Below, in pieces: positions 2,534 to 47,136 of a DNA stretch of 64,000 bases. Positions within the stretch are counted from its first letter, which is position 1. Every line of letters begins with the position of its first letter. The DNA comes from Laspinema sp. D2d (GTDB lineage Bacteria > Cyanobacteriota > Cyanobacteriia > Cyanobacteriales > Laspinemataceae), in assembly GCF_025370755.1 (NCBI RefSeq), contig NZ_JAMXFC010000001.1, positions 62,001-126,000 on the forward strand, given 5' to 3'. The notes under the pieces are model-generated. The model was not told the origin of the DNA. It worked only from the letters and a program-made list of their open reading frames with translations, and did no database searches. Both the position numbers and the translations under genes were made by a program.

Positions 2534-3898
2534 ATGGCTTTACCTATAGTTGCTATTATCGGACGCCCTAACGTGGGCAAATCAACCCTTGTCAATCGGA
2601 TTGCTGGGGGTAAACAGGCGATCGTCCATGATGAACCGGGAGTCACCCGCGATCGCACCTATCGAAATGCCTTCTGGCAAGACCGAGACTTTCAGATCGT
2701 TGATACGGGCGGATTAGTCTTTGATGATGATACCGAATTTTTACCCTTAATTCGAGAACAAGTCATGACAGCGCTTTCTGAATCAAGCGTTGCGCTATTT
2801 GTGGTAGATGGACAACAAGGGGTCACGGAAGCCGATCGCGAAATTGCTAACTGGTTGCGTCATCAAAAAGTCCCCGTTGTACTCGCCGTGAATAAATGTG
2901 AATCCTTAATGGAAGGATTAACCCAAGCGGCAGAATTTTGGGAATTAGGCATGGGTGAACCTTATCCCATTTCTGCCATTCATGGCAGTGGAACCGGGGA
3001 TTTATTAGATCTCGTCATTACCCACTTGCCGCCGACTTCCGAAATTGAAGAAATGCCGGAAATTAAAGTGGCGATCGTTGGACGTCCTAATGTTGGCAAA
3101 TCCAGCTTACTCAATGCCTTTCTGGGAGAAAAACGGGCGATTGTCAGTCCAATTTCGGGAACGACTCGCGATAGTATCGATACCTTTGTGGAACGGAACG
3201 GAAAAAGCTATCGAATTATCGATACCGCAGGCATTCGGAAAAAGAAAAATGTCGAATATGGACCTGAATTTTTTGGGATAAACCGGGCGTTTAAAGCGAT
3301 TCGTCGGGCGGATGTGGTGCTGTTGGTCATTGATGCAGTGGATGGGGTAACGGAACAGGACCAAAAACTGGCGGGACGCATTGAAGAAGATGGACGTGCC
3401 TGTGTCATGGTGATTAATAAATGGGATGCGATCGAGAAAGATTCCTATACCATTTATGACTATGAACGCGATATCAAAAGTCGCCTCTATTTCTTAGAAT
3501 GGGCAGAAGCAATTTTTGTGAGTGCCGTCACCGGAAAACGCGTAGAAAATATCCTGGATTTAGTCGATAAATCGGCGGAAGAACATCGTCGGCGAGTTTC
3601 TACTTCAGTGATTAATGAAGTGCTAAAAGATGCCTTGCATTGGCATAGTCCTCCGACCAGTCGTCAAGGAAAACAGGGAAAAATTTATTATGGGACGCAG
3701 GTTACCAGTCAACCTCCGACTATTGCCTTATTTGTGAATGACCCGAAACGATTTAACGATAATTATCGCCGTTATATCGAGCGTCAATTCCGTGAACAAC
3801 TGGGATTTACGGGGAGTCCATTACGGTTGCTATGGCGTGGGAAAAAAGCTCGGGACTTTGAGGACAATAATACCACCAATCGAGCCGTTAAGGTTTAG
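2534..3898 (+). CDS. der: Ribosome biogenesis GTPase Der (EngA)
   Basis: Der is a tandem-GTPase factor that binds the 50S subunit during its assembly. The 454-residue protein has two G domains. The first has GRPNVGKS near residue 10, DTGG as G3 and NKCE as G4. The second has GRPNVGKS near residue 177, DTAGI and NKWD. They are followed by the C-terminal KH-like domain. The ATG at 2534 ([12 protein letters not shown]) is preferred over an upstream in-frame codon at 2501, because family members begin immediately before the first P-loop. The ecfT and trpE-like genes follow in the same direction after a 128-base gap, an arrangement common in cyanobacteria. Confidence 0.97.
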
Positions 3899-38394: not shown

Positions 38395-39873
38395 ATGACT
38401 GTTATTGACTCCGCTCAAGCACCCAAACGCACTAATCCATTTCTGTCTCTCAACCTGGAAACAGCCCTAGAATCTTTGGGGGAAGACTACTATGATATTG
38501 TGGCGGCTGCTGAATTTCCTCAGCATATTCTCCGGTTTCGTAATAACGAATTATTAACCCAATTAGGGTTACATCCCTCCACTGTAACTGATGAAGATTT
38601 TATTGAAGCTTTTGGTTATTTTCAGGGCGTGCGTCCGTTTTTAGCGCTGCGCTATCATGGCTATCAATTTGGAGAATATAACCCCAATTTAGGCGATGGA
38701 CGGGGCTTTATTTATGCGCAAGTGCGAGGGACTGATGGGAAACTTTATGACTTCGGGACCAAAGGTAGTGGCAGAACCCCTTATTCTCGTCATGCCGATG
38801 GACGGTTAACCCTGAAAGGAGGGGTTAGAGAAGTTTTAGCAGCGGAAATGTTGAATCGGATGGGAGTTAGAACTTCTCGCTGTTTAAGCTTAGTTGAAAC
38901 CGGCGAACAATTGTGGCGAGGTGATGAACCCTCTCCGACGCGATCATCGGTGATGATCCGTTTTAGTGAATCTCATATTCGATTTGGCACGTTTGAACGA
39001 TTGCACTATTTAGGGCGAAAAGATTTAATCGAAAAACTCTTAGATTGGGTTATTACTCATTATTATCCGCATCTCAATGATACCCTACCGCCCTTGATTT
39101 CCTCGGGTACCGGAAACCCGAAAGAGAAATATGCCCGATTTTATCAAGAACTGGTGCAGCGGGTGGCTACCTTAACGGCACAATGGATGGCAGCCGGATT
39201 TTGTCATGCGGTGTTAAATACTGACAATATGTCCATAACGGGAGAAAGTTTCGATTATGGGCCTTTTGCCTTTATTCCTACTTACAACTTAAAGTTTACA
39301 GCCGCCTATTTTGACTATTATGGTCGCTACAGTTACGGCAATCAACCCGCCATCTGTCGTTGGAATCTGCAAATGTTGCAAGTTCCGTTAAAAGCGATGA
39401 TTAATGAGGCGGACATGGAAGCTGCCTTAGAGGAATATTATGACCATTATAACCGAGAATATCGCCAACTGATGCTGAGTAAGTTGGGATTTGGGGAAGA
39501 AATGCCGGAAGAGGCAGCAACTGAGTTGGTGCAATTAACTTTGCAACTCTTGGGTGAGTCTCAGGTAGAGTATCCGGAGTTCTTTTGGCAACTCAGACAG
39601 CAGTTTTCTCCGGAGTGGCGGGAAAACAGTGATTCTATTTTTGGTCCGATGGAAACCGATTCTGAATTGTTTGTATCTTGGCAGCGAGCCTATTTCCATT
39701 TATTACAGTTTGTGGGAACAGGGGATTTAGAGGGAATGCGAGAACGGATGGCTAAATATAATCCAGAAAGGGTGATACTCCGACCCAAAATTGAGGCCAT
39801 CTGGGAACCGATCGCGCAGGAGGATAATTGGCAGCCCTTTTATGATTTGTTGAACCAAATTAAAGCGGGATAA
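38395..39873 (+). CDS. selO: Protein adenylyltransferase SelO
   Basis: A pseudokinase-fold enzyme that transfers AMP to protein Ser, Thr or Tyr residues (YdiU/SelO). The 492-residue protein has NLGDGRGF near residue 100, [15 protein letters not shown] near 123, and the catalytic [20 protein letters not shown]-type region (about residues 271-290) with the metal-binding Asn and Asp. The redox-active C-terminal Cys or Sec of some homologues is absent. It is convergent with the nitric oxide synthase gene across a 185-base gap. Whether the two are functionally linked is unknown. Confidence 0.95.
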
Positions 39874-40058
39874 GTCCAAAAATTTCGTTAATTGGGTTCA
39901 CCCCTTTTTCTTGTCAGTTGTTCTAGTTTCCTCCCCTTGCTTAAGAGGAGGAAACCGGCATTTCCTCAAGGTTGATGGAATGCGCGTCTTTGTCAAAACC
40001 CTCGACTGATGCCGGAGGAATCGCGGAATCAGTCGCGACTCCTTTACAAACCCTTAAA

Positions 40059-43000
40059 TCAGGTTTGATTGACGAGTTGGGGTTGCTCTGTGTTGTGGAT
40101 TTTTTCGGAATCTTTGAGACGTTCAAGCCAGACTGCTGCTTTGGAATAGTTGGCTTTTTGAACCTGCTGAATCGATTCTTTGAAGTTGAGTGTTACCCCC
40201 CAGACATCGCTAACTAAGCGCTTTTCCTGTTTCATCCGGTCAAAGAATTGCACCATTTCGTCATGAGTTAGGTTCCCTTGTTTCTGGGCGATCGCCTTCA
40301 TTGTCGTCAAGACATCATCGGCCATTTTAGCATCCCCACAAACATAATAATAACACTGGGGATGACTGAGCATTGCCCAGACTTTTTCGGGTTGCTGTTC
40401 CATCAGGTGTTGCAGATATTGTTTGGGTTCTCCCATCCGAGAAAAAGCCACTTCGAGTCCGGTGAGAATCTGACGATCGCGCCATTCCTGCAACGGCTGC
40501 TGATAGAGAAAATCACTGTGATTGCGACAGCCGAAATATAAGCTTGCTTCACCCAAAGGGATTCCTTGGTTTTGGAGGGCTTCTCGATGCTGTAGAAAGG
40601 CAATTAAAGGAGAAACACCTGTTCCTGGTCCTACCATCAAAATCGGGGCGAGGGAATCGGTGGGAGGGCGGAAGGTAGAAGTCCGAACTCCAATCCGAAC
40701 AGAGGAACCGACTTGTAATCCTGCCAGATAATTAGAACAGACTCCGGGGCGGACTTTCCCGCTATCGGTGTTAATTTGTAGCACCCCTACGGTAATTTGA
40801 ATCTCCCGGGGATGCAAGAGAGGACAGGAAGAGATGGAGTATAAACGGGGTTTTTGTTTGGGAAGGAGTTCTAGCAAAGGTGCAAGGGCGATCGCCGCTG
40901 AAGGAAATTCTTCAAACAAATCCACCACAGTGATGAAGTTATCGAGAATCATCTTTTTGAGGGCGATACTATCGGGCTGTTCATCTCCCAGGCGCAAAAT
41001 TTCTACCCAGGTTTCTAGGCGCTGTTTTTCCGGAAGATTTTCGGTAACTGAATATAGATAAGTCAGCAGTTCATTAAAGGGTTCTCGCAAGGCGAGATCC
41101 AGTTCTTCTGCAAAGACTTGACGGACGATCGCCGGTACAGCAATGGGAGGAGAATCTTCCAACAATTCCCCGCTAGACAGGGCATATTGAGCAGTAAAGT
41201 AAGTCTCCGGGTCCAAGTTGAGGCGATCGCATAATCGCTGCACCAACTCCGGTGAATTGCAAGGATAAATGGCAACATGATCGCCGGTTTCATAGTGTAG
41301 TTCGGTCTGAGCCAGATCTAAGGTAATAAAGCGTGTAGAACGACTCCCGGGAATCATATCTTGCAGTAGTTCTTGATTGGCCGTAACGGGAACCGGGATA
41401 CCGCGATCGCGAGAAGCCGGAGGAAGGGTTGCTGCTTCCAAGAAAGTAACCGTTAGTTTGGGGGTAGTCGTTGCGGTACTCCCCGCCGTTGTATCGTCTC
41501 CCAACACCCGAGAAACTAAGCCCAACCATTGCTTAAAGGTATCCGCTTGTCCTTTGATTTCATCCCCTTTATGCAGGGGAACAATAGAATTTGCACCGGC
41601 TTTTTTGAGGGCTTTTTCGATTAAAATTCCCGCCGCGCAAAAGTGTTCATACACCGTGCTACCAATTCCCAAAACCGAGAAATTCAATCCCGTAAAAGAA
41701 CCTTTGGGCTGTTGCTGTAACCATTGGAGAAATCGCTTCCCATTGCTGGGCATCTCACCATTGCCAAAGGTCGAAGTAACGACTAGCAACAGCTTTTCCG
41801 AAGCTAGGGTGCTGGTGTTATATTCATCTAACGCCATCACTTGGGGCCGGTACCGGCTGAGTTGACGGGCAGCTTTCCGAGCAAATCCCTCCGCAGTGCC
41901 GGTTTCAGAGGCATACAGAATGAGAATTCGGTCTTGTTTTTCCCCATCTTCATCCACTAGGGCCATCTGTTGTGCTAAATCTAATCCATCTTCGACGGCC
42001 CAACGGTCAGCCGCAAGATGATAGGCAGGTTCGAGGTAGAAGTCTCGCATCCCATGATGCCACACGGGACAAGTGCTGCCACCGGAAGCGGGAACCACCC
42101 AGGCCCACTCGCTGGGGCATTCCCGTCCTGCTTTCTTTTCGCGCAAATCATGAGTGAGAAATTGACGAGAGGCGGTTTGGTGATCCACCATTGTCACCTT
42201 TGCTTTTTGGAAGGAGTGGAGGATGGCGATGTTGAGTTCCAAGGCGACGCGATCGCGCCACAAGGTTTGCTCACTACTGGTATCCAGTTTCAGGACCTGG
42301 GCAATCTCCTCCATTTTGTTATAGCGAGTTTCATCCAGGAAATCCCGCATGATTTCGGTATCCATATACCAGCCATTAAACGGCATACAGCCATAAGTCA
42401 CACCGCCAATGTGAACCGAGAAGTTGCTAATGGCGGGAATGGCATACCAGCGCATTCCAATAGCTTTGAACTCCGGAACTGTGGGATGTTCAATTTCTAC
42501 TTCTAGCACTTCCTCACGCTGCCAGTGATACATCTGGGGGGCTTGACCGGGAACTTCTATCACGACGGGCAGAATGTCATACGCTGTTGGCAGTTGCGGA
42601 GGTTGCCAGCCTAATTTGATAATAGCGTTGGTCAGATCCAGATTGGCCGGATCTCCCAAAATACTGCCATCGGGCTGGGTATAGGCCGCATAGCGGAAGA
42701 GTTGAGAGTTCCAAATGCGCGGTCCCCAGCGTTCCTTGGGCAGTTTGGGCCGAAACACGGTCATCGTGATTTGGAGGTTACCCCCATTAGCGGCAAATTG
42801 GGCGTGTTCCTGAAGTTCGCGGAACATCTCATCAGGTTCACTCACATGACGGCGATCGCGCACCACCATGTTATTCCAGGCAATCCGTCCCACACATTTG
42901 GAGGCATTGCGCCATGCTACTTGAGTCCCATAGGCCAGTTCTTCGTAAGTATGCGTATAGGTTCCCGTCGCTTTTACTTCATCCTTAATTTCTTTCCAGC

Positions 43001-44309
43001 GACGCTCTTTGTCTTCCGGTTCCCAAACTTGTTCGGAGGAAATGACATCCAGGAATTCCTTAGCTTTTTTGAGCACCCGTTCGTGATTGAGCATGGGCAT
43101 TTTGATCACGTTAACCACGCGATCGAGCAAAATTTTCCACCCCTGTTTTAACTCTGGGGTAAAGTTGGGCAGGTAACGCTCAAATAAGATAAACAGGGTA
43201 TCTGCCATCGCCGGATATGCACAGGTGGGCACATCAGCAAAGCTATGAATCTGTCCCAAAAAACGCAGGGATTGCAACATTTCTTCACTGCTGCCACTTT
43301 TCAAACAGCCCACCAAAAATTCCAATGCCTGAAATAAATGGAGGGATAGATAATCCATATCAGACCGTCCGAAAAGGGGCAGAACAAAGGGATATTTTTC
43401 AAAAAGAAGTTGATAAAATTCCCGGCCCATTTGTTGCTTACTCTGGTTAAAATCATCCCAGCAAGCCGCCATTTCTTCTACCAATTCCCGTGGCAAAGCT
43501 GCTTCATATTGCTGCACTGCCTCGATCATCGGTAAAATTATATGGCTATTAAAGAACTTATAGAAGGCCGAATTTTCGCCTTTGCTCAAATCTTCGTAAT
43601 CGTATTCGTCTAAGGGAGTAGAGGCGATCGCCCACATCCAGACTTGCCTTATCTTAATCCAATGACGGGGACGCATTCCCGTATCGGCAAAGAAACGGGC
43701 ATATTCCGAAACCGTTTTAAACCCATATTCGGGTTCCGGGGGAACTCCGGTTAACATTTCGGCTAGGATAATTTGAGTGTGAGGTTGAAGCTGGTGAACT
43801 GCACAGTCAAAAAGCCCATAAAAGAAGTCGCTCATGCTGTCGATCGCTTCTCCAAACAGATACTCTAATTCTGGCTCATCCAGGAGCAACCGCTTGAAGA
43901 ATTTTTCCATTTGCAGTTCTTTAAACCCCCGCACCTTGTTCCAGACATCTTTGACAATTACTTCCTCCTGTGGGGTCAGGCATATCAGGGGAGGCGGCGT
44001 AAATTCTGCTTGTTCTGCGGTGCTGTTAGTCTGCCGATGCACCGTATTTTGGGGGTTAAATAGGGTAATCTTGTTGCAAGAACCCTCACTGCTACTTTGG
44101 GTTAGACGGAGTTTTAATTTAAGCTGTGGCGCTTGGATCCATGTCGTGATTGGAAACTCCAAGTCGGCATTGAGTTCGCCATTTAAACAGTGTGCTGTAT
44201 TAGCTTCCACCGTTGCCACATCCTGCCAGGGATTACTAATATCTCCTTCCCGGTAACAGAGCGTGATGGCGAGCGTGCAGTCTCCGCTATTTTTAACTCT
44301 ACCAACCAA
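40059..44309 (-). CDS. Nitric oxide synthase with globin domains and flavoprotein reductase
   Basis: Oxidises arginine to NO and citrulline, with electrons from NADPH via FAD and FMN. In the 1416 residues read from TTG 44309: a beta-rich N-terminus (1-80); globin-like domain 1 (about 112-265); globin 2 (about 272-400) with proximal His355 in LGQIH; NOS oxygenase (about 405-770) with [10 protein letters not shown], haem-thiolate Cys472 and substrate Glu652 in GWYMDTE; a short linker; FMN domain from 797 ([11 protein letters not shown]); and an FAD/NADPH module with [22 protein letters not shown] and YYVCGD. There is no long calmodulin-type linker. The second globin could convert NO to nitrate, as proposed for the Synechococcus PCC 7335 enzyme. 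TTG has no ribosome binding site; the true start is probably 44485 in another frame. Confidence 0.93.
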
Positions 44310-44485
44310 CTCGGTTGCATCCGGGCAAACAATTCTTTTTCTAAAATAACCTCCTCATTGTGAGGGGTGATCTGCACCCTGCATTTGTATTTATAGCGGC
44401 TAGAAACTGGAAAGTTAGTAACAGCAACTTCAGTCAGGTGGATGATTTTTTCGCTACTGAGAGTCGGCAAATCTTTTAGCATCAT
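44183..44485 (-). other. Out-of-frame N-terminal segment of the nitric oxide synthase
   Basis: From ATG 44485, MMLKDLPTLSSEKIIHLTEV... runs in a different frame to 44183. Its first 53 codons read as a beta-strand-rich segment ([19 protein letters not shown]). At TTGTTTG (44332-44326) a one-base shift joins EKELF to [17 protein letters not shown] of the main frame, giving a continuous beta-sandwich. The main frame has a stop at 44355-44357, so its own upstream part is only about 16 codons. The joined protein would be 1475 residues, close to the known cyanobacterial globin-NOS length. A sequencing error, a real mutation or programmed -1 slippage can explain it. Confidence 0.7.
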
Positions 44486-44850
44486 AATGTAGATTAAGTA
44501 GAAGGAGATTCGGACAGTGGCGATTTAGAAACAAAATGCCCCAATATAGCTAGTCTAAATCAGTTTGACAATGGCTCCCAGACTGAAAGTCTTGGAGTGC
44601 GAGCATCTTGCTCGCTATCTTTATGTCAAATTCATTTAGGGTCGCTATATAAGGGAATGGAGGTCTTAATAGTCGGGGATCAGTATTTTATCTTAACTTT
44701 AACCCCTCTAGCTTCGACTCAAGTACCTAGTCAGACTGGCCTGAACTCGATCACCATGTTGTCATTATAGGGCAAGTGGACTACAAGGAATAATAAACTT
44801 AAGGGTGTTTCGGAAGCCCCAGGGTAAACACATTTATATTTTTTCTCTCC

Positions 44851-44887
44851 ATATATAGTATATTAACTTATCTACAATACTATATAT
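44851..44887. repeat. AT-rich perfect inverted repeat
   Basis: ATATATAGTAT (44851-44861) and ATACTATATAT (44877-44887) are perfect reverse complements separated by 15 bases. It lies 366 bases upstream of the likely NOS start. It could be a regulator site or a simple cruciform-prone stretch. Confidence 0.6.
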
Positions 44888-45303
44888 AGAATAATTCCGA
44901 GCAATCAGGCCCTGTTAGTTTGATTTGGTGATATGATATCACGATTTATGAACCCTCCTATGGGCAACCACTGGCTGATTCCCTGAGTGTTGAGTGTTTA
45001 TTCGCATGGATTGAATCCTTGTCGGTTGCAATGGATCCATAGAAGGGAAGGCCCCATTGCCAATCGGGTTAGAGTCCATTACCGATTCAAATAAAATCCG
45101 ACAAAAATAAGGCGGAATTGTAGCAATCACCGCAGAGTCATTAAATCTGCGCGAAAGCTCAGGAAACCTTGAAGGTTCCCTTTGATTTTTCTCACCCTCT
45201 CAACTGTCAAAATGTATTGAAAATAAAAGTACCACAAATCATAGAAACTCCTTAAATTGCACCTGGATCGAGCTTGGTATTACACCTCCATAAAATTGTA
45301 AAA

Positions 45304-45394: not shown

Positions 45395-45643
45395 TTAGGC
45401 TCCGGGCATAGTTCCCGTGGGGCTGCGATGAGCACCAACTTGGGGACGCGGATGCCATTTACCATCACTTCCTTCCTCATAGCTACTCCGCAGGGAATTC
45501 CAAGCCACATCCAGAGCTCCACTATCGCTCATTCCATTGGAGGAAGCACTATTATAAGCAGTGAAGAAAATATTTTGCGCGCCTTCAGGTAGTTTTTCTT
45601 TTACATCATTGGGCAAATCTTCTCGGGTTTGGTAAGCCATCAT
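45395..45643 (-). CDS. ChaB-family protein
   Basis: An 82-residue protein with the ChaB fold pattern: QTREDLPNDVKEKLPEGAQNIFFTAYNSA followed by ALDVAWNSLRSSYEEGSDGKWHPR. ChaB was named as a putative cation transport regulator in E. coli, but its role is unclear. GGAG sits eight bases before the second ATG (45640), so MAYQTRED is the likelier start; the first ATG gives 82 residues. It has its own terminator. The link to the neighbouring NOS gene is positional only. Confidence 0.85.
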   Translation of the reverse strand: MMAYQTREDLPNDVKEKLPEGAQNIFFTAYNSASSNGMSDSGALDVAWNSLRSSYEEGSDGKWHPRPQVGAHRSPTGTMPGA

Positions 45644-45936
45644 TAATTCTCCTAATTTACTGAGTTTTTACAATAGATTCAATTAAATCAAAGTTTCAAA
45701 TAAAAGCCCTCTACCAGCAGGCTGAATCAAAAAATACATTTTGTTGAATTTATGCCGGGAATCACCGAAAATATCCATCTGAAGGTAGGGGCGAAAGATA
45801 GTCTAATTTTAAAGGGATTGAATGGTGGTAAATTCAGGCGATCGCTCTCTTACTCTGCCTTAAGTCTGACTCGGCTTTTCTAGCCGGGAAAAATCGCTTA
45901 TAATACAACTTCAAACCTCCGTAAGTATGAACCTAT

Positions 45937-46098
45937 ATGGGCCGCGTCCGAGCCAAAGCTGACTTTCCAGAAAAAATCTGCCCCGTCTGTCAACGCCCCT
46001 TTACCTGGCGGAAAAAATGGGCGGATTGTTGGGATGAAGTAAAATATTGCTCGGAACGCTGTCGCCGTCGCCGTTCCCAAGCTCAACCCATCGAATAA
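45937..46098 (+). CDS. DUF2256 zinc-ribbon-like protein
   Basis: A 53-residue protein from ATG 45937 with ICPVCQRPFTWRKKWADCWDEVKYCSERCR, the DUF2256 signature. Two CxxC-like pairs (CPVC and C-SERC) suggest a zinc ribbon. The family is found in cyanobacteria and proteobacteria without a known role. It is basic at both ends, so nucleic acid binding is possible. The next gene in the same direction starts 103 bases later. Confidence 0.88.
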   Translation: MGRVRAKADFPEKICPVCQRPFTWRKKWADCWDEVKYCSERCRRRRSQAQPIE

Positions 46099-46200: not shown

Positions 46201-47136
46201 ATGACAACGGGTGCGGTAAAACCCAAGCTGATCATTCACGGTGGCGCGGGTAGCTCTCTTAAAGACAAAGGTGGACTTGAAGCGGTGCGCGGCTCCCTCC
46301 ATGCCATTATAGAAGAAGTGTATGGGATGTTAATGCAAGGGGCCTCTGCTACAGAAGCGGTGGTACATGGATGCCACCTCCTGGAAGATGAACCGCGTTT
46401 TAATGCGGGGACAGGTTCGGTGTTGCAATCGGATGGACAAATTCGGATGAGTGCGGCGTTAATGGATGGCACGTTGCAACGCTTTAGCGGCACGATTAAT
46501 GTATCTCGGGTTAAAAATCCCATCGATTTAGCTCTATTTTTACAAAAGTCTCCCGATCGCGTGTTGTCGGATGTGGGTTCAGCAGAATTGTTGCGCGAAT
46601 TACAACTGCCGATTCATAATCCCCTGACGGATAAGCGGTTGCAGGAGTGGATGGAGGAACGCAAGGATAATTTTTCCCGCACTATGGCGAATGTGGTTGC
46701 AGAATCCTCGGGACGGGGAACGATTGGGGTGGTGGTACTCGATCGCGAGGGGAAAATTGCCGCAGGAACCTCTACGGGAGGGAAAGGATTTGAACGGATC
46801 GGGCGCGTTAGTGATTCGGCAATGCCTGCGGGAAATTACGCCAATCCCAAGGCGGGAATTAGTTGTACGGGGATTGGGGAAGATATTATCGATGAGTGTC
46901 TCGCGGCGCGAATTGTGGTGCGTGTGACAGATGGATTATCGTTAATGAATGCCTTTGAGCGATCGTTTGCAGAAGCGGAACGGAATAAGCGAGATTTTGG
47001 GGCGATCGGGATTGATGCCACAGGTGCGATCGCGTGGGGTAAAACTTGTGAGGTGATTCTCGCTGCCTATCACACCGGCGATCGCATCGGTGATGCCTTG
47101 GAAATGAGTCCAGAAATGGGGGTTGGCATTGCCTAG
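46201..47136 (+). CDS. iaaA: Isoaspartyl peptidase / plant-type L-asparaginase
   Basis: An Ntn hydrolase that cleaves itself into alpha and beta subunits, hydrolysing beta-aspartyl dipeptides and asparagine. The 311-residue precursor has IIHGGAG near residue 11, FNAGTGSVL near 68 and the nucleophile Thr in RGTIGVVVLD at about residue 172, which becomes the N-terminus of the beta chain. STGGKGFERIGRVSDSAMPAGNYA and CTGIGEDI motifs follow. It may help mobilise nitrogen from cyanophycin-derived beta-Asp-Arg, a known role of this family in cyanobacteria. It starts at ATG 46201. Confidence 0.93.
   Translation: MTTGAVKPKLIIHGGAGSSLKDKGGLEAVRGSLHAIIEEVYGMLMQGASATEAVVHGCHLLEDEPRFNAGTGSVLQSDGQIRMSAALMDGTLQRFSGTINVSRVKNPIDLALFLQKSPDRVLSDVGSAELLRELQLPIHNPLTDKRLQEWMEERKDNFSRTMANVVAESSGRGTIGVVVLDREGKIAAGTSTGGKGFERIGRVSDSAMPAGNYANPKAGISCTGIGEDIIDECLAARIVVRVTDGLSLMNAFERSFAEAERNKRDFGAIGIDATGAIAWGKTCEVILAAYHTGDRIGDALEMSPEMGVGIA

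What the first reader, a model, noticed from the sequence alone, without database searches (positions are those of the whole stretch)
40059..44485. Cyanobacterial nitric oxide synthase with globin domains and a built-in reductase
Seen: haem-thiolate Cys472, substrate Glu652, FMN, FAD and NADPH motifs, and a globin with a proximal His, all on one chain. Known: NOS with its own reductase is mainly animal; few cyanobacteria carry it, and the Synechococcus PCC 7335 enzyme has a globin that can oxidise NO. Inferred: this protein may turn arginine into NO or nitrate and so supply nitrogen or signal. There is no calmodulin-style linker, so control must differ from animal enzymes.
Basis: partly seen in the sequence, partly recalled or inferred. 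Interest (0 to 1): 0.85.

Follow-up and report, generated by a model that had tools for sequence, protein, structure and literature searches.

The report
Cyanobacterial nitric oxide synthase, regulator broken
This cyanobacterium carries a known type of multi-domain nitric oxide synthase on a movable piece of DNA, with its calcium-sensing domain split by a reading-frame break, while its close relatives carry unusual extra domains that may tie nitric oxide production to calcium or carbon dioxide.

Summary
The observation largely holds: a 1416-aa frame (40059-44309, minus strand) encodes pseudoglobin, haem globin, NOS oxygenase, flavodoxin, FAD/NADPH reductase and C-terminal tail, with Cys472 and Glu652 as stated. 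It is an ortholog of syNOS (Synechococcus PCC 7335), whose cryo-EM structures were published in 2026, so the kind is known. Corrections: the reported span is not one frame. Residues matching syNOS 16-66, in the first half of the Ca2+-sensing C2 domain, lie in another frame (44291-44485); the break sits in a short A-run. The first globin-like unit corresponds to syNOS's haem-free pseudoglobin. The gene lies on a ~5.4-kb insertion absent from five of seven congeners (two uninformative); the only other NOS-bearing congener has it elsewhere, at a site empty here. The window copy evolves fast in pseudoglobin and reductase but not in the oxygenase. Its closest relatives end in an LCIB-type carbonic-anhydrase domain (3 intact, 1 remnant), absent here; four other copies have an EF-hand pair in place of the globin's proximal-His segment. 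My literature searches found neither variant. Best reading: a horizontally moved syNOS-type NO synthase/NO dioxygenase whose regulator is broken or decaying here, or a sequencing error at one spot. New member of a known kind.

The parts
40059..44309 (-). NOS main reading frame, 1416 aa from TTG 44309 (first in-frame ATG is codon 134)
44291..44485 (-). First half of the C2 domain (ATG 44485), encoded in a different frame from the rest (ORF 44183-44485)
44025..44297 (-). Second half of the C2 domain and start of linker L1 (residues 5-95 of the main frame)
   Evidence: boundaries taken from alignment to syNOS
43500..43997 (-). Pseudoglobin (residues 105-270), no proximal His
   Evidence: syNOSpGlb described in PMC12922734
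43095..43487 (-). Haem globin / NO-dioxygenase type domain (residues 275-405), proximal His355 at 43245-43247
41985..43094 (-). NOS oxygenase domain (residues 406-775); haem Cys472 at 42894-42896, substrate Glu652 at 42354-42356
41505..41942 (-). FMN flavodoxin domain (residues 790-935), joined by a short linker without room for a calmodulin-binding segment of animal type
40185..41447 (-). FAD/NADPH reductase domain (residues 955-1375)
40059..40184 (-). C-terminal tail (residues 1376-1416) and stop; no LCIB domain follows, unlike L005, L009, L067
39887..45276 (.). Approximate extent of the inserted segment carrying the NOS gene; absent in five congeners
   Evidence: blastn against L091-L095
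44541..44662 (.). Stretch inside the insertion, upstream of the gene, where the 12 partial matches elsewhere in the genome fall (dispersed repeat)

Best explanation
The locus is a horizontally moved member of the syNOS family: C2 - pseudoglobin - globin - NOS oxygenase - flavodoxin - FAD/NADPH reductase - C-terminal tail. Mechanism by orthology: electrons run NADPH to FAD to FMN to the oxygenase haem of the partner subunit, which turns arginine into citrulline and NO using tetrahydrobiopterin; the globin, reduced by the same reductase, oxidises NO to nitrate; Ca2+ moves the C2 domain from the oxygenase (NOS blocked) to the globin (NOS allowed). In this copy the C2 domain is split by a frame break, its Arg107-type contact is Leu, and pseudoglobin and reductase evolve fast while the oxygenase stays constrained. 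If the break is real, the encoded chain lacks the first half of C2; since syNOS without C2 makes no NO but still passes electrons, this allele would probably be poor or dead as a Ca2+-controlled NO synthase. Shown: domain content, frame break, insertion, uneven change. Inferred: chemistry, regulation and loss of activity.
For: Near full-length match to syNOS; Pfam domains; catalytic residues the same in 20 aligned rows. The C2 start runs on in one frame in 14 of 14 genome contigs relatives at the place where the window breaks, and in congener L067. Insertion: SelO and the block beyond NOS are joined in 5 of 7 congeners, 2 uninformative; the NOS of G007 lies at another site that is empty in G004 and in the window's own genome. 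NOS identity to the congener 80% and to Planktothrix 77-79% (best segment), against SelO 93% and 65%. Window end branch 0.27 against 0.054 for its sister in the C2-globin tree; changes at otherwise invariant sites: pseudoglobin 11/81, reductase 13/180, oxygenase 1/209. Ca2+/C2 mechanism and the C2-deletion result: PMC12922734.
Against: One assembly only: the break lies in a short A-run, where a sequencing error is easy. The oxygenase shows almost no relaxed change, so the gene is not an old pseudogene. The C2 basic-patch residues (Lys35, Lys37, Arg81) and Arg57 are retained (the first, second and fourth read off by eye). Arg107 is also replaced in L007, L060, L061 and L085, so that loss is not peculiar. 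In C2 and globin the window is not an outlier by invariant sites (1/20, 1/40), and L060 shows more odd changes in C2, globin, oxygenase and flavodoxin. dS is above 1 or undefined in 34 of 42 comparisons, so the rates rest on protein distances. In syNOS itself neither Ca2+ nor removal of C2 changed globin reduction much (PMC12922734), so the C2 switch on the globin side is not settled. No activity was measured.
Confidence: 0.72

Rival explanations
1. The frame break is a sequencing or assembly error; the organism has an ordinary intact six-domain syNOS-type enzyme.
For: Break in a homopolymer run; both halves of C2 remain recognisable; oxygenase constrained; five other copies also show broken frames, of which L011 is a contig of about 4.8-fold coverage by its name and L012 a 7.7-kb contig.
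Against: The genome is 99.99% complete with 0.23% contamination; the window copy is also the fastest-evolving one in its clade and lacks the LCIB domain, which an isolated error would not explain.
Confidence: 0.45
2. The gene is decaying after horizontal acquisition: regulatory part first, catalytic part later.
For: Fast change of pseudoglobin and reductase, C2 break, absence of LCIB, and remnants of the six-domain type in other genomes (L064, L066); a NOS of another type is also broken by stops in G019 (L063).
Against: Oxygenase 1 change in 209 invariant sites, no stop in 1416 codons.
Confidence: 0.3
3. The break is read through by programmed frameshifting or slippage on the A-run, giving full-length and C2-less forms from one gene.
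For: A-run at the junction; both frames stay open across 127 bp.
Against: None of 14 relatives has the arrangement; the run is short; no stimulatory element was tested.
Confidence: 0.06
4. The enzyme serves as an NO dioxygenase or diflavin reductase and no longer makes NO.
For: syNOS without C2 loses NOS activity but keeps cytochrome c reduction (PMC12922734); globin His retained.
Against: The most constrained domain in the window copy is the NOS oxygenase, unexpected if it were unused.
Confidence: 0.15

Closest known systems
syNOS, Synechococcus sp. PCC 7335 (PDB 9q05, 9q06, 9q0x, 9q0y, 9q15; PMC6104048, PMC12922734)
   Same: Same domain order, near full-length alignment, same haem Cys, substrate Glu, globin His, pseudoglobin without His, short linker.
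   Different: C2 domain split over two frames; C2 Arg107 is Leu; carried on an insertion.
NOS of G007 (L067), UBA8803 (L009) and Planktothrix paucivesiculata (L005)
   Same: Closest relatives, with L002 one clade of 5 rows at 100/100.
   Different: Those three carry an extra C-terminal LCIB_C_CA domain, 1723 aa; C2 in one frame.
Mammalian eNOS/nNOS/iNOS
   Same: Oxygenase plus diflavin reductase with C-terminal tail; matches from 1e-169 (nitric oxide synthase 1, long chain) to about 1e-97.
   Different: No calmodulin linker; C2, pseudoglobin and globin added. Absence of the Zn site is as described for syNOS in the paper, not tested here. The paper finds the tails of syNOS and mammals unlike in sequence.
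Sorangium-type NOS (oxygenase with [2Fe-2S] and FNR modules; recalled, from no call)
   Same: A similar arrangement is present in other cyanobacteria (L057, L058).
   Different: Different reductase, oxygenase at the C-terminus; not this gene.

Membership tests
Nitric oxide synthase (PF02898) | Full oxygenase domain with haem-thiolate Cys and substrate Glu | tested here: met
   Profile 2-361 of 362, 8.5e-149; Cys472, Glu652
Nitric oxide synthase (PF02898) | Arginine-, NADPH- and pterin-dependent NO formation | not testable with these tools
   No assay; two PTPS-family genes in the genome leave pterin supply possible, but the family has other members too
syNOS six-domain family | Pseudoglobin, globin with proximal His, oxygenase, flavodoxin, FNR, C-terminal tail in that order | tested here: met
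syNOS six-domain family | N-terminal C2 domain in the same chain | tested here: inconclusive
   Both halves present but in two frames; error or real break not decided
syNOS six-domain family | Ca2+ activation through C2 | not testable with these tools
   Reported for syNOS (PMC12922734)
Calmodulin-controlled animal NOS | Calmodulin-binding linker between oxygenase and flavodoxin | tested here: not met
   26 residues between Pfam oxygenase (to 770) and flavodoxin (from 797), part of which belongs to the oxygenase end; aligned with syNOS and with 18 of 19 relatives (one chain stops before). Judged from length and alignment; no calmodulin-site predictor was run
NOS-LCIB fusion (as in L067) | C-terminal LCIB_C_CA domain | tested here: not met
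   tblastn finds only 22 residues of the tail; no PF18599 in the genome

The most novel reading that the evidence does not exclude
The window gene is a regulator-stripped descendant of an undescribed seven-domain enzyme in which NO synthesis and NO oxidation are joined to an LCIB-type carbonic-anhydrase-like domain, so that NO output answers to both Ca2+ (C2) and inorganic carbon. It belongs to a wider mobile family in cyanobacteria that has swapped its Ca2+ gate, including an EF-hand pair put exactly where the globin's haem-ligating segment was, switching off the NO-dioxygenase arm for good.
Probability: 0.25. Interest if true: 0.78.

Novelty: new member of a known kind. Interest (0 to 1): 0.45.

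Why it matters
The Ca2+ control of multidomain NOS without calmodulin has, in the papers I saw, been studied on one protein, syNOS. The copies gathered here give natural variants of its parts: a broken C2 (window, L145), an LCIB extension (L005, L009, L067) and an EF-hand pair replacing the globin haem-ligand segment (L061, L085, L087, L089). These make directly testable whether C2 is needed for NO synthesis, whether the globin's NO oxidation can be lost, and whether NO production is tied to carbon status. The insertion evidence also shows that NOS moves between cyanobacteria, which bears on the patchy distribution of NOS and on nitrogen-supply claims.

Tried and rejected
NtcA boxes (GTA-N8-TAC) within 600 bp (171 bp for L007) upstream of 21 copies: 2 found, both in L062, 3.6 expected by mononucleotide shuffle; a looser form gave 1 (L060). 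Dropped as support for nitrogen control. Neighbouring isoaspartyl peptidase (46201-47136) as a partner that frees arginine from cyanophycin: rejected, it belongs to the old flank shared with NOS-less congeners. The window shares no flanking ORF of 60 aa or more with any of 20 other loci; pairs and trios among the others share some, and several flanks are short. Target-site duplications or terminal repeats at the insertion ends: none convincing; the best is one imperfect 18-nt inverted pair (39838-39855 with 45229-45246, 83%), whose left arm lies inside SelO. Transposase was not sought by family search; no ORF of 90 aa or more lies between the NOS gene and the right end. Using dS to date the break: above 1 or undefined in 34 of 42 comparisons. 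A regular expression for the proximal His failed and was replaced. Structure prediction and fold search were not used, because solved structures of syNOS align over nearly the whole chain. Literature searches, open-licence library only: NOS with C2 domain, cyanobacteria and globin, 1 paper, the syNOS structure; NOS with LCIB and carbonic anhydrase, 0; NOS with EF-hand, cyanobacteria and oxygenase domain, 1, on placozoans; NOS with globin, EF-hand and oxygenase, 4, none on cyanobacterial NOS by title; NOS with Planktothrix, 13, of which the 12 listed are by title about toxins or about cyanobacterial or marine natural products and health.

Full report
What is there. The main frame at 40059-44309 on the minus strand gives 1416 aa from a TTG. 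Pfam finds, in order, Globin 297-402, NO_synthase 409-770, Flavodoxin_1 797-928, FAD_binding_1 964-1194 and NAD_binding_1 1225-1333. It is the only PF02898 match in the genome. phmmer against solved structures puts syNOS of Synechococcus PCC 7335 far ahead: residues 7-1397 align with syNOS 68-1467 at 1994 bits, against 570 bits for the next distinct protein, a nitric oxide synthase 1 entry.

The 2026 cryo-EM paper on syNOS (PMC12922734; outline, start of the text and sections 10, 12, 14, 15 and 17 read, passages) describes six domains: C2, haem-free pseudoglobin, globin, oxygenase, flavodoxin, FNR, plus a C-terminal tail. C2 binds Ca2+ (Kd 1.6 uM) and moves nearly 85 angstroms between oxygenase and globin; removing it abolishes NO synthesis but not cytochrome c reduction. 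The paper also reports that neither Ca2+ nor C2 removal changed globin reduction much. The window protein fits this plan. Its first globin-like unit has Phe where a proximal His would be (place assigned by eye), as do all 18 rows, window included, that cover the place. There is no calmodulin-type linker.

The frame break. The span 40059-44485 is two frames. The upstream frame (44183-44485) begins with the C2 start: residues 13-64 match syNOS 16-66, and its counterpart in 14 of 14 relatives from named genomes runs on in one frame with the next C2 segment. In the window the frames change within a short A-run near 44,290. The main frame has no ATG before codon 134, inside the pseudoglobin. Intact copies exist, for example in the congener G007 (L067). 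Broken frames are not rare: of 31 six-domain copies held (distinct by contig), L011, L012, L014, L015, L145 and the window show shortened open frames (L089 is cut by a contig end); L145 is also broken in the first half of C2. I cannot tell error from mutation with one assembly.

A moved gene. In five of seven congeners the SelO gene and the block beyond the NOS gene lie side by side, 0-164 bases apart, where the window has about 5.4 kb (39887-45276). In one of the five (G001) the match resumes only at 45898. G005 matched on the SelO side only and G003 ended at a contig end, so both are uninformative. Only two of eight genomes of the genus carry NOS. The other, G007, has it at another place; that place is closed up in G004 (5 bases between the flanks) and in the window's own genome (186 bases). 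NOS is 80% identical between the two congeners and 77-79% to Planktothrix of another family (best segment), whereas SelO is 93% and 65%. Trees of the two parts of the chain disagree with taxonomy and in part with each other. I found no convincing target duplication or terminal repeat; dispersed repeats lie by both insertions.

Uneven constraint. In the C2-to-globin tree (18 rows) the window's end branch is 0.27 against 0.054 for its sister L067; in the oxygenase-reductase tree (19 rows) it is 0.15 against 0.083. At sites invariant in the 16 other rows (L014, L015 and L089 left out as incomplete) the window differs at 11 of 81 in the pseudoglobin (others 0-3) and 13 of 180 in the reductase (others 0-8), but 1 of 209 in the oxygenase (others 0-15), 1 of 40 in the globin, 2 of 75 in the flavodoxin and 1 of 20 in C2. 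So the acceleration is in pseudoglobin and reductase; the oxygenase is held fast. Another row, L060, is also odd, but in C2, globin and oxygenase. The syNOS C2 residue Arg107, which bridges to the oxygenase, is Leu here and is also replaced in L007, L060, L061 and L085.

Variants among relatives. The window's own clade (5 rows, 100/100) contains three copies with an extra C-terminal LCIB_C_CA domain (L005, L009, L067; E 1e-65 to 1e-67); the window and L002 lack it, and a pseudogene outside the tree has an LCIB remnant (L064). In a sample of 388 genomes of the order, 40 match PF18599, 39 over the cut-off; three intact matches lie in NOS-length frames (G007, G448, G590) and one remnant in G103; apart from one sub-threshold match (G503), the rest lie in frames of 138-384 aa. 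The domain is nearest to Chlamydomonas LCIB and LCIC and has Arg where the diatom PtLCIB4 has Ser47. A 2021 paper states that LCIB itself lacks carbonic anhydrase activity (PMC8825250, passages), so a sensing or scaffold role is more likely than catalysis (inference). Secondly, four copies in one genus (L061, L085, L087, L089) have an EF-hand pair in place of the segment that carries the proximal His (Pfam EF-hand_7 3e-12 for L061). The C2-globin tree fits a single origin (L089 not in that tree), while the oxygenase-reductase parts fall in two places, which suggests recombination inside the gene. The His is present in 26 of 31 copies, the EF pair in 4, and 1 (L011) is broken there. The 2018 syNOS paper described only two cyanobacterial architectures (PMC6104048, outline and one section read).

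Distribution. PF02898 matches in 17 of 386 genomes of the phylum sample, 13 over the cut-off, and in 42 of 388 of the order sample, counting all NOS types and remnants: patchy but not rare.

Verdict. A syNOS-type enzyme, known in kind, on a moved segment, with a doubtful regulator. The interest lies mostly in its relatives, which supply natural experiments on Ca2+ control, NO oxidation and a possible carbon link.

Noticed in passing
L005:7821-12992, L009:4142-9313, L067:5968-11139: NOS chains of 1723 aa ending in an LCIB_C_CA domain, a seven-domain fusion not found in my literature search.
   Followed up: partly
L061:4738-9396, L085, L087, L089: EF-hand pair sits in the globin where the proximal-His segment should be; haem binding and NO dioxygenase activity are probably lost and a second Ca2+ site gained (Pfam on L061 only).
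   Followed up: partly
L057:4097-7762, L058:3892-7542, also L148, L150, L151, L152, L153: Other cyanobacterial NOS: N-terminal Rossmann-like part (by eye), EF-hand pair, BFD [2Fe-2S], FAD/NAD reductase, then NOS oxygenase; Ca2+-linked by a different route (Pfam on L057 only). L148 lies in two frames.
   Followed up: partly
L056:4343-7624: NOS with two cyclic-nucleotide-binding stretches, BFD, FAD/NAD reductase and C-terminal oxygenase.
   Followed up: no
L014:7833-10313 and L014:10380-12230: Six-domain NOS split into two open frames between oxygenase and flavodoxin in Chroococcus FPU101; error or true split not tested.
   Followed up: no
L145 (G655), 3232-3359: A second copy with a frame break in the first half of the C2 domain.
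   Followed up: no
window 45395-45643 (-), 45937-46098 (+), 46201-47136 (+): ChaB, DUF2256 and asparaginase_2 genes form the old flank shared with NOS-less congeners, so they are not likely NOS partners.
   Followed up: yes
L067:4845-5019: Highly repeated short element, dozens of matches in congeners, next to the NOS insertion of G007.
   Followed up: no
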